From IMG/VR virus record IMGVR_UViG_3300042476_000766, positions 1 to 61,266 of that record: a DNA stretch of 61,266 nucleotides, one strand, 5' to 3'. Under the pieces are notes generated by a model. That model worked only from the letters and a program-made list of their open reading frames with translations, made no database searches and was not told the DNA's origin. The translations under genes were made by a program, and so were the position numbers. The stretch comes from a virus. Shown in pieces: positions 40,739 through 59,905 of this stretch (positions are counted from its first letter, which is position 1; every line of letters begins with the position of its first letter).

Positions 40739-40918
40739 ATGAGAGTTTGTCCATGTGGGTCTGGCAAGAAAAGTTGGTGGGAAAGTGATGCTAGGGGAAT
40801 TCCACTGGGTAGGGTTTGTTTGGAGTGTTTAGATAAAAAGTTGAGTAAGTATCGACCGGAAGTGTTGACCAACTCCAACTACTACGCCGACGAGCCTATT
40901 GAGGCCGAGGACTATTAG
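40739..40918 (+). CDS. 59-residue phage zinc-ribbon protein
   Basis: VCPCGSGKKSWWESDARGIP and RVCLECLDKKLSKYRPEVL form a C-x-C...C-x-x-C ribbon; the DARGI.L.RVC..C...KLS.YRPE wording matches a small protein family found in many phages, ending with DEPIE. Probably a nucleic-acid- or protein-binding adaptor; no established function. TAG touches repeat copy 10. Confidence 0.7.
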   Translation: MRVCPCGSGKKSWWESDARGIPLGRVCLECLDKKLSKYRPEVLTNSNYYADEPIEAEDY

Positions 40919-41005
40919 TCGTAAGTCCTTATCCTTAAAGCACTTAGGGATAGGGCGAGCGGCCGAAATCGACGTAAGTCCTTACCTCTAAACGATTTGC
41001 GTCTA
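40919..41005 (+). repeat. Double-hairpin element, copy 10
   Basis: Left arm CGTAAGTCCTTATCCTTAAAG...CACTTAGGG, core GAGCGGCCGA, right arm GACGTAAGTCCTTACC...GATTTGCGTC. It ends 25 bp before the large RNA's promoter. Confidence 0.75.
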
Positions 41006-41029
41006 AAAAGATTTTTTCAAGAAATACTC

Positions 41030-41057
41030 TTGACAAGACGATAATAGATGGTAGAAT
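41030..41057 (+). promoter_or_regulatory. Promoter of the large structured RNA
   Basis: TTGACA, 16-bp spacer with GACGATAATAGATGG, TAGAAT; the only downstream feature is the RNA. Confidence 0.8.
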
Positions 41058-41676
41058 GATTGAAGAACAAGTGAAAACTTGTTGGTTGTGTCGGGCCGAG
41101 CAGCCGGTAAAAACGGTAGTTGATGTCCTAGGAAACGTCTTCTACAATCGGTCCTAACAATACAAATCAGTCAGAAGTATAATCGTAAAGTAAGAGAGGC
41201 CCGTGTTGACACGGATAACCTAGCGTAGTATACTCTGACTGACAAACATCCGTGGGTCCATGCTCAAGGGACTAGATAGGGATAAGCCATTACGATAAAC
41301 CTACCGGCACATTGAAATAGAAATACCGGTGGGGTTGACAGCGGGCTTATACGCTGTATAGTAGTGCCTATCTATGTGGGATTGCGTCCAGACCACGGCC
41401 AATACAATCCGGTATTATCCTTCATCGGGTAATAGAGTGAATTAACACCGCAACATTACGCTTGCGTTCTATCTTTCATCGGGTAGAATCACTGAAATAA
41501 CAGCCGGATACCGAACAACCAGTAACCGTCGCCAAGAGCCAGACCAGAGTGGGTCTTATGTGCTAGCAATGCCCGCTTTGCAGGGAGGATTTCCGTGGAC
41601 GGTTTACACAATGTCCGTAACAGGGTAGCACGGTGAGCAAGAATCGGGGCGTAAAAGATTCGCTGGTTTTTAATAC
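41058..41676 (+). ncRNA. Large ornate structured RNA candidate (about 600 nt)
   Basis: A stretch of about 620 nt without a credible ORF, GC-richer than its flanks, between its own promoter and the next gene's promoter. Predicted helices by eye: AACAAGT-GAAA-ACTTGTT (41066-41083); a 14-bp helix of 41167-41181 with 41229-41242 (one bulged A) enclosing CCGTG-TTGA-CACGG; 41273-41280 with 41367-41374; CCTACCGG/CCGGTGGG (41300-41333); ACAGCG/CGCTGT (41338-41357), whose loop GGCTTAT can pair with ATAAGCC at 41282-41288 (pseudoknot). Two hairpins (41413-41434, 41467-41488) share a TTCATC loop. Further stems lie at 41449-41466 and 41541-41556. Size, pseudoknot, GNRA loop and nearness to tRNA genes recall the ROOL/GOLLD class, but I cannot assign it to either. 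Confidence 0.75.
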
Positions 41677-41704
41677 TTGACAGATAGAGAATAGATAGTA
41701 GAAT
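41677..41704 (+). promoter_or_regulatory. Promoter for the 41723 operon
   Basis: TTGACA, 16-bp spacer with GAATAGATAG, TAGAAT. Confidence 0.75.
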
Positions 41705-41722: not shown

Positions 41723-41905
41723 ATGAGTCTTTTAGATGTGTTGCTGAGTGAAAACACTGAACGCCTGCCTACTTTCAACGAGTTGAAAAAGATTTTACTA
41801 GCAGTTTGTCCTAATGGGCAAATTGAATGGGATAATAATAATCAGATTATTTTTTATACTAACTTGACCGATAACGAAGACGGAACACTCAGGGAGTTTG
41901 AATGA
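41723..41905 (+). CDS. 60-residue acidic small protein
   Basis: MSLLDVLLSENTERLPTFNE, then a beta hairpin IEWDNNNQIIFYTNLTDNED. First of five tightly packed genes; overlaps the next ATG by 4 bp. Function unknown. Confidence 0.5.
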   Translation: MSLLDVLLSENTERLPTFNELKKILLAVCPNGQIEWDNNNQIIFYTNLTDNEDGTLREFE

Positions 41906-44538: not shown

Positions 44539-44566
44539 TTGACAAACTGGACTATGCCAGTATAAA
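44539..44566 (+). promoter_or_regulatory. Promoter of the multi-hairpin RNA
   Basis: TTGACA, 16-bp spacer, TATAAA. Confidence 0.65.
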
Positions 44567-44572
44567 TAGATT

Positions 44573-44760
44573 TTAGGCATAGTGCGGCGGGATTCGTCCC
44601 GCGTAATGATGTGGGCTCAGACCCACCTAGCAGAGTCTAACCAACTAATAACCGGCGTGGTTGCCGGGAAGGGGTCTGCTGCTAGTAATATAACGATGGT
44701 AAAGTGATCCCACCATCAAACCGTATAGCCTCTATGGGACGCCATAGGGGCTTGCGGCAT
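44573..44760 (+). ncRNA. Multi-hairpin structured RNA (about 190 nt) upstream of the tRNA genes
   Basis: No ORF. Successive perfect or near-perfect stems: GCGGGA-TTCG-TCCCGC (44587-44602); GTGGG/CCCAC (44611-44626); CTAGCAG with CTGCTAG (44627-44633/44679-44685) enclosing CCGGC/GCCGG (44652-44667); GATGGT/ACCATC (44695-44717); CCTCTATGG-GACG-CCATAGGGG (44729-44750). It has its own promoter and ends where the tRNA promoter begins. No known RNA family is recognised. Confidence 0.65.
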
Positions 44761-45095: not shown

Positions 45096-45809
45096 ATGAT
45101 GAAAACTGCAAATGGTAATGATAAGTTGGGTAAGGAAAATTGTATTGTGGTTTCGCGTCCGGTTGGCGATAGTTGTCCGTCCGATTGTGATTTTCTCGGT
45201 AACGGATGCTATGCAGAAGATTTGGAAAATATCTATCCCGGTGTTCGTCCTGCCGGTATGCAAAATCTTGTTACAGAAAAGAATAGTATTCGCTCCATGC
45301 TGGTGGATGCCGTCAAGAAAAATAAAGATGTTCGCTGGCATGAGCGTGGCGACTTTTTCAAGTATGGTGAACTTGACAATGAATATGTTGATAATGTATT
45401 GTGGGCCTGTGAGAATATTCTTGCCAGTGGTGGTAGTCTGCCGACCATGTGGGCTTATACCCATATTTATGACACTAGATTGTCTATGGAACTTGGCAAG
45501 TATATCAATATGTATGCTAGTATCCATGATGGTGAAGATATGAAACAGGCTAAGGCTGCTGGTTTCAAACTGTTCGCATGGTGTGATAGTGATACTAAAA
45601 TTGCCCCTAAGCGTCCGCGTGGTAAGAATAAGGTTGCAGCATGGCGATCAGCACTGCCGAAACTAGTTGTGCTGGAAGGTGAAAAGTTTGTCACTTGCCC
45701 GGAAATTCGTCGTGGTCGTGGAGTTGTCACTTGCACAAAAACCAAAAATAGCGTACACTGTGACTTGTGCGTTCGTGGTTTGGCTAATGTTTTGTTTCCT
45801 GCACACTAA
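45096..45809 (+). CDS. Gp88-like cysteine-motif protein
   Basis: 237 residues. The N-terminus (GDSCPSDCDFLGNGCYAEDL) has a C-x3-C-x6-C set, and the C-terminus has CPE, CTKTKNSVHCDLC (at least four Cys), the layout of phage Gp88-type and DUF5131-like proteins, which are thought to hold an iron-sulfur or zinc centre. RWHERGDFFKYGELDNEYVD and LPTMWAYTHIYDTRLSMELG are further family-like blocks. A classical radical-SAM C-x3-C-x2-C motif is not present. An RNA- or nucleotide-modifying role is guessed from the tRNA-rich setting only. Confidence 0.6.
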   Translation: MMKTANGNDKLGKENCIVVSRPVGDSCPSDCDFLGNGCYAEDLENIYPGVRPAGMQNLVTEKNSIRSMLVDAVKKNKDVRWHERGDFFKYGELDNEYVDNVLWACENILASGGSLPTMWAYTHIYDTRLSMELGKYINMYASIHDGEDMKQAKAAGFKLFAWCDSDTKIAPKRPRGKNKVAAWRSALPKLVVLEGEKFVTCPEIRRGRGVVTCTKTKNSVHCDLCVRGLANVLFPAH

Positions 45810-59251: not shown

Positions 59252-59905
59252 ATGATAGAAGATATATTAAAAAAACAAAATATAGATATTGATGATTCAA
59301 ATATATTACTGATGTTTTCTGGTGGATTAGATTCTACTGGGGCTTTATGGCAATTATTACAGAACAAAGAGAACAAAATACATCTACATCATTTATATCT
59401 TCTGAATAAAGAACAAAGAGCAGAAGCGGAGCAGCGGTCTGTTAGAAATATTCTTTCGTATGTATCTCAATCATACAAAGTTAAATATAGTCAAAGTTAT
59501 CATGAATATCCTTTTTATTCGTATTTAACAGAAACGGCGGATGCTATAGTTATTAATCAAAATTTTATGTTTGATAGTGATATATACAATTTTATTGCGG
59601 CTTCTATTTGTAAGTGTTTACCTAATATTAAAAAAATTGCTGTAGGTCGCACAAAATCTGATATGGGTGCAGATATAGAAGAAAGAGCTATTAGGGGAAC
59701 ACAAATATTGAAACTATTTGTTCCAAATGTTGAAAAAGTATATCCTGTTGAACATTTAACAAAAGCAGAGATATATAATACTATTCCTACAGAACTAAGA
59801 AACATGACTTGGAGTTGTAGGACTCCTATTATTAGTGATAAGGATATATTTAAAGAATGTGGAAAATGTAAAACTTGTATAGAACTCAATAAGATCAAAA
59901 ATTAA
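59252..59905 (+). CDS. PP-loop ATPase, QueC-like
   Basis: 217 residues. LLMFSGGLDSTGALWQLL contains the SGG-x-DS pyrophosphate loop. The C-terminus WSCRTPI...FKECGKCKTCIELNK holds four Cys in the pattern of the QueC zinc site. QueC makes 7-cyano-7-deazaguanine (preQ0), used for queuosine and for phage DNA modification. No QueD, QueE, GTP cyclohydrolase or DNA transglycosylase is seen in the window, so another adenylating reaction is possible. Confidence 0.7.
   Translation: MIEDILKKQNIDIDDSNILLMFSGGLDSTGALWQLLQNKENKIHLHHLYLLNKEQRAEAEQRSVRNILSYVSQSYKVKYSQSYHEYPFYSYLTETADAIVINQNFMFDSDIYNFIAASICKCLPNIKKIAVGRTKSDMGADIEERAIRGTQILKLFVPNVEKVYPVEHLTKAEIYNTIPTELRNMTWSCRTPIISDKDIFKECGKCKTCIELNKIKN

What the first reader, a model, noticed from the sequence alone, without database searches (positions are those of the whole stretch)
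41058..41676. Promoter-driven, gene-free RNA of about 600 nt with pseudoknot and repeated hexaloops
A sharp GC rise, absence of usable ORFs, a consensus promoter in front and another promoter behind point to one RNA. I can draw at least nine helices, including a 14-bp long-range helix (41167-41181 with 41229-41242), a loop-helix pseudoknot (41282-41288 with 41344-41350), a GAAA-capped hairpin, and two hairpins with the same TTCATC loop. Known biology: phages carry very large ornate RNAs of similar size (ROOL, GOLLD) near tRNA genes, which form RNA-only multimers. Here tRNAs start 3.1 kb away. It may be a member or a new class.
Basis: partly seen in the sequence, partly recalled or inferred. 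Interest (0 to 1): 0.92.

Follow-up and report, generated by a model that had tools for sequence, protein, structure and literature searches.

The report
Mix-and-match giant phage RNA
A family of environmental viruses of bacteria, many of them very large, carries a long non-protein RNA built from swappable folded blocks strung together around a fixed core, and one core block carries a self-matching loop that probably lets two copies of the RNA stick together; its job is unknown.

Summary
The promoter, gene-free stretch, pseudoknot, long-range helix and twin TTCATC hairpins are all at the stated places. Comparison with relatives shows it is one of 90 non-redundant arrays in an uncultured phage clade (contigs up to about 240 kb). 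Each array is a promoter followed by structured RNA modules, usually joined by AATACAA-like linkers. Two modules form a near-constant core: C (window 41250-41398; 83 of 85 complete arrays, counting its variant C2) and E (41519-41666; last in 77 of 85). About 20 other module families are swapped around them, giving 57 architectures; 54 of 63 array pairs whose C is at least 95% identical differ in make-up. Covariation beats a simulated phylogenetic null in C, including the predicted pseudoknot, and permutation controls in E. One E hairpin loop keeps a self-complementary palindrome (67 of 79 copies) although its sequence changes between unrelated palindromes, pointing to homodimerisation by kissing loops. 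Some variable modules are tRNA-like with an altered anticodon region. No Rfam family matches the window RNA; ROOL and GOLLD models fail in relatives. It resembles those RNAs but is not a member. Function is unknown; my preferred guess is a self-assembling scaffold displaying host-directed modules.

The parts
41030..41057 (+). sigma70-type promoter (TTGACA-16-TAGAAT, TG before the -10)
   Evidence: promoter-like site within 100 nt of the first module in 79 of 85 complete arrays
41058..41158 (+). Module A (optional 5' module, 21 copies); hairpin 41066-41083; loop CCTAGGAA with palindrome CCTAGG at 41127-41132
   Evidence: paired changes in L045 and L052; in-frame stop in 11 of 21 copies
41159..41165 (+). 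AATACAA linker
   Evidence: linker-like motif at 173 of 209 module junctions
41166..41242 (+).
   Evidence: (z = -4.1)
41250..41398 (+). Core module C: cloverleaf-like; P1 41250-41255 x 41393-41398, P3 41273-41280 x 41367-41374, P4 41288-41293 x 41361-41366, P6 41338-41343 x 41352-41357
   Evidence: 9 of 48 pairs significant against AliSim null; the count of structure pairs 0 of 500 shuffles on all five measures
41282..41288 (+). 5' strand of pseudoknot (ATAAGCC), pairs with 41344-41350 in the loop of P6
   Evidence: pair 41286-41346 G-C/C-G, two-set E about 0.0001
41344..41350 (+). 3' strand of pseudoknot (GGCTTAT)
41401..41407 (+). AATACAA linker
41408..41512 (+). Module D (optional, 10 copies), twin TTCATC-loop hairpins
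   Evidence: (z = -3.1)
41519..41666 (+). Core module E, last module in 77 of 85 arrays; closing helix CCAG/CTGG; 3' hairpin 41641-41645 x 41657-41661
   Evidence: arm-matching permutation tests, 0 of 20000
41561..41568 (+). Palindromic apical loop TGCTAGCA of the E P4 hairpin, proposed homodimer kissing loop
   Evidence: palindrome of 6 nt or more in 67 of 79 E copies, 22 of 31 distinct loops against 5.6 expected
41677..41704 (+). Promoter of the following small-gene operon (41723-41905 onward)

Best explanation
A dedicated noncoding-RNA gene makes a long RNA of independently folded modules. A near-constant core (pseudoknotted cloverleaf-like module C and terminal module E) is joined by short A-rich linkers to interchangeable modules that recombine between phages. 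Shown by comparison: conserved promoter position, structure, modularity, module exchange. Inferred with moderate confidence: E dimerises the RNA through a self-complementary kissing loop, so the RNA works as a self-assembled scaffold. Inferred with low confidence: the rapidly exchanged modules, some of them tRNA-like with an altered anticodon region, are host-directed (capturing or decoying host factors such as tRNA-handling or tRNA-cutting enzymes), which would explain why they turn over like counter-defence genes beside the tRNA operon.
For: Homologues in about 90 non-redundant arrays. C covariation against a tree-simulated null, 9 of 48 pairs including the pseudoknot; independent pair count 0 of 500 shuffles. 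E helices: matched arms pair far better than permuted arms, 0 of 20000 for three helices. 57 architectures in 85 complete arrays; E last in 77; C or C2 in 83; promoter-like site in 79. 54 of 63 array pairs with C at least 95% identical differ in modules. Palindromic E loop: unrelated sequences TGCTAGCA, TTCATGAA, TGATCA, GGTACC, TGCGCA, TTCCGGAA, TGGGTACCCA; no such loops in 68 C copies as a control, invariant CCTAGG in A. tRNA-like module H above the Rfam tRNA threshold with an enlarged or altered anticodon region, and a tRNA match nested downstream of E in L113 and L193. C found at a single place in 13 of 16 searched contigs, most over 120 kb, all of its copies within one array.
Against: No expression data; transcript ends unknown. 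No intrinsic terminator was found after E, and in some relatives E runs straight into a ribosome-binding site, so the RNA may be a leader or may be processed. Palindromes could serve something other than dimerisation; 12 of 79 E copies lack one; the loop test treats distinct loops as independent. The cloverleaf likeness of C is by eye: the tRNA model does not hit C. Nothing ties any module to a named host target.
Confidence: 0.55

Rival explanations
1. A polycistronic array of separate small RNAs: the long transcript is cut in the A-rich linkers (RNase E-like) and at tRNA-like modules (RNase P/Z), and each module acts alone, as in a tRNA operon.
For: Modules are closed by their own helices and joined by AATACAA-like linkers; tRNA-like modules sit inside arrays; the locus lies near the tRNA operon; free order of variable modules.
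Against: C and E are kept together in 77 of 85 complete arrays with E last, more than independent genes need.
Confidence: 0.27
2. A long structured 5' leader that regulates, insulates or stabilises the downstream small-gene mRNA.
For: In several relatives E is followed directly by AATACAAAGGAG and a start codon; no terminator after E.
Against: In the window and several relatives a new promoter follows E; the context downstream varies and the array lies in a different order relative to the tRNA operon in some phages; module turnover is unlike riboswitch leaders.
Confidence: 0.12
3. A distant member of ROOL or GOLLD whose sequence has drifted beyond the models.
For: Similar size, phage carriage, tRNA neighbourhood, GOLLD-like constant 3' part and tRNAs inside some GOLLDs (PMC12286853).
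Against: No ROOL or GOLLD match over threshold in the relatives searched or in the window at E up to 10.
Confidence: 0.04
4. Eroded protein-coding or intergenic sequence, structure by chance.
For: Module A has a 33-aa frame in the window.
Against: Compensatory changes, paired indels, stops in half the homologues.
Confidence: 0.01

Closest known systems
GOLLD RNA (Rfam RF02032)
   Same: Phage-borne, large, ornate, near tRNA islands; universally conserved 3' region with less conserved 5' region; tRNAs sometimes in its linker; homo-oligomer with self-interacting kissing loops (PMC12286853).
   Different: No match to the GOLLD model over threshold in 20 relatives; here exchange is of many discrete modules on both sides of C, in 57 orders.
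ROOL RNA (Rfam RF03087)
   Same: Phage or prophage RNA of about 580 nt near tRNAs, multiple pseudoknots, RNA-only oligomer (PMC12286853).
   Different: No match over threshold in 18 relatives; [quoted passage not shown]
tRNA (Rfam RF00005)
   Same: Module H scores above the tRNA threshold (32.5-35 bits) with canonical D and T arms.
   Different: In most copies the anticodon arm is replaced by an insert of about 40 nt; H is one optional module; C, E and the window RNA do not match tRNA.

Membership tests
GOLLD | Score above Rfam RF02032 gathering threshold | tested here: not met
   0 of 20 relatives over cut-off; window: none
GOLLD | Constant 3' region with variable 5' region | tested here: met
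   E last in 77 of 85 arrays, 5' modules variable; but there are also variable modules between C and E
GOLLD | RNA-only homo-oligomer (14-mer cage) | not testable with these tools
   needs native gel or cryo-EM; palindromic loop suggests at least dimerisation
ROOL | Score above Rfam RF03087 gathering threshold | tested here: not met
   0 of 18 over cut-off; a single 8.8-bit match, E 1.5
ROOL | Phage-borne and near tRNA genes | tested here: met
   tRNA operon 3.1 kb away in the window, within several kb in most relatives with enough flank
OLE, HEARO and all other Rfam 15 families | Covariance-model match in the RNA | tested here: not met
   at E up to 10 only one chance match on the other strand (bxd_6)
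tRNA (module H, in relatives only) | Cloverleaf with D and T arms over the RF00005 threshold | tested here: met
tRNA (module H, in relatives only) | Normal anticodon loop | tested here: not met
   about 40-nt insert in the anticodon arm of L010 and most other copies; L013 is closest to normal
tRNA (core module C) | Match to RF00005 | tested here: not met
   no hit; the cloverleaf resemblance is by inspection only

The most novel reading that the evidence does not exclude
A new kind of genetic cassette system made of RNA: a self-assembling core RNA that carries exchangeable structured RNA effector modules (including tRNA mimics with altered anticodon regions) against host functions, reshuffled among phages much as protein counter-defence genes are.
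Probability: 0.35. Interest if true: 0.95.

Novelty: new variant of a known kind. Interest (0 to 1): 0.84.

Why it matters
Giant phage RNAs such as ROOL and GOLLD have solved structures but no known function. This family adds what they lack: about 90 natural variants in which the core is held and peripheral modules are swapped, so parts can be assigned to roles by comparison, and a loop whose only conserved property appears to be self-complementarity, which makes RNA-RNA assembly directly testable by altering one hairpin. If the modules are host-directed, it would be an RNA counterpart of mosaic anti-defence gene islands.

Tried and rejected
Known families: cmscan at gathering and relaxed thresholds on the window and several relatives; ROOL and GOLLD models on relatives. 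RF01998 was tried by mistake as GOLLD; it is group-II-D1D4-1, with no match over its cut-off. Isolated phages and plasmids: blastn with the window RNA and three module-rich relatives found nothing, and the g237 protein found nothing; the terminase finds only remote relatives under 26% identity in the rows listed. A genome-contig scan with an E-module string gave one hit, a 4.6-kb contig in an alphaproteobacterial MAG from Lake Lanier, too short to call a host. Coding origin of module A rejected. C as a true tRNA relative not supported by models. Column-based covariation on E was weak in the all-pairs test (one pair with E < 0.05) because its inner helices are swapped and align badly; the arm-permutation test was used instead. 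A first palindrome scan on minimum-energy loops failed because folding paired the palindrome on itself. The E-against-C identity comparison was not completed (script error after the first count).

Full report
Observation. The promoter ends at 41057 and another lies at 41677-41704. No usable ORF covers 41058-41676 on the + strand. The long-range helix 41167-41181 x 41229-41242 and the pseudoknot strands are exactly where stated. The whole RNA folds better than dinucleotide shuffles, z = -2.1. The GC rise is small; the fall in GC skew is clearer.

Finding relatives. The window is a virus record with no close match among isolated phages. Two protein-guided scans of viral contigs, with the genes at 45096 and 41902, brought relatives. 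Blastn of the region showed it conserved in three blocks, 41057-41166, 41242-41407 and 41515-41676, with the pieces between them present or absent as units. Pattern scans added more, for 90 non-redundant arrays, 85 not cut by a contig end. Searched contigs reach about 238 kb, and C was found at one place in each of 13 of the 16 contigs searched, with two copies inside a single array in one of them.

Anatomy. The RNA is a string of modules, most closed by their own helix, separated by AATACAA-like linkers (motif at 173 of 209 junctions). In the window: A, B, C, D, E. C (or its variant C2) is in 83 of 85 complete arrays, E in 79, both in 77; E is last in 77; a promoter-like site lies within 100 nt upstream of the first module in 79. 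Twenty-three profile families were defined, giving 57 architectures. Of 63 pairs of arrays with C at least 95% identical, 54 have different module orders. Identical arrays recur in contigs from different samples (for example L056, L057, L058 and L061), so the mosaic is not an assembly artefact.

Structure is under selection. For C, a sequence-only alignment of 51 copies was tested against 60 alignments simulated on its own tree: in the all-pairs test the two pairs with E < 0.05 and the third at E < 1 are all in the proposed helices, and 9 of the 48 proposed pairs pass E < 0.05 in the two-set test, including pseudoknot pair 41286-41346 (19 G-C, 27 C-G) and 41288-41366. An independent count gave 94.5% paired cells and 27 pairs with two-sided change, 0 of 500 shuffles reaching any measure, and a collapse when the partner is slid by one column. 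For E, the arms of three helices match within a sequence far better than between sequences (6.16 v 3.46, 5.83 v 4.38, 5.33 v 4.16; 0 of 20000 permutations each); this permutation ignores phylogeny. Modules A, D and G also show paired changes by inspection.

A loop whose rule appears to be self-complementarity. The apical loop of E's P4 hairpin differs widely between arrays, yet 67 of 79 copies hold a palindrome of six or more bases: TGCTAGCA (the window, 41561-41568), TTCATGAA/GTCATGAC, TGATCA, GGTACC, TGCGCA, TTCCGGAA. Among 31 distinct loops 22 have one, against 5.6 expected from shuffled loops. L023 adds TGGGTACCCA. Loops of 7-10 nt holding a 6-nt palindrome are the geometry of known homodimer kissing loops (established knowledge). 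C has none in 68 copies; A has an invariant CCTAGG loop, and O and P also carry palindromic loops. Dimerisation is the simplest reading but is inferred; the distinct loops are not fully independent of phylogeny.

tRNA connection. Module H passes the Rfam tRNA threshold with an insert of about 40 nt in place of the anticodon loop (L010; L070); L013 carries a shorter form. In L113 and L193 a tRNA match lies inside another module downstream of E. C and C2 have a cloverleaf-like plan, but no tRNA model hits C, so that remains resemblance only. The array lies within several kb of a tRNA operon in most relatives with enough flanking sequence.

What it is not. No Rfam family matches the window RNA at E up to 10 apart from a chance match on the other strand. 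ROOL and GOLLD models give nothing over threshold in relatives. Large phage RNAs near tRNA islands, with a conserved 3' part, tRNAs in the linker and self-kissing loops, are described for GOLLD and ROOL (PMC12286853), so it works in a similar style without being a member. My paper searches found no description of such arrays, but the library lacks many journals, so absence there is weak evidence.

Mechanism. Shown: a structured, modular, rapidly reshuffled RNA locus with a conserved promoter position. Inferred, moderate: E-mediated dimerisation. Inferred, weak: the modules act on host components. The main rival is cutting at the linkers into separate small RNAs; expression data would decide.

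Noticed in passing
window 44546-44608 (+): Pistol ribozyme above threshold, upstream of the tRNA-Arg gene; also found upstream of tRNA-Arg in relatives L078, L090 and L113. About 180 nt of further gene-free sequence follows it before the tRNA.
   Followed up: partly
window 40920-41057 and many other intergenic places: Repeated intergenic element: CGTAAGTCCTTA-type sequence followed by a TTGACA..CGATAATAG..TAGAAT promoter; several diverged copies per genome in relatives and in the window.
   Followed up: no
L113:9772-9935, L193:4085-4270; tRNA-like calls also 3' of E in L066, L071, L060: A further module downstream of E with a nested tRNA match; ARAGORN reads a four-base anticodon GAGA in L113 and gives undetermined tRNA calls in L066, L071 and L060.
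   Followed up: partly
module E, inner helices (alignment A2): Modularity is nested: the inner hairpins of E are themselves exchanged for unrelated ones while the frame of E stays.
   Followed up: partly
L078:16791-16826: abiF RNA match just above threshold (37.4 v 37 bits) in a relative.
   Followed up: no
window 59252-59905: QueC-like queuosine biosynthesis gene in the same phage, relevant to tRNA modification.
   Followed up: no
window 40740-40919: Small gene just upstream of the array that reads by eye as a Cys-rich CPCGSG...RVCLEC protein; a blast with a mis-framed translation still marked this stretch upstream of the array in several relatives.
   Followed up: partly
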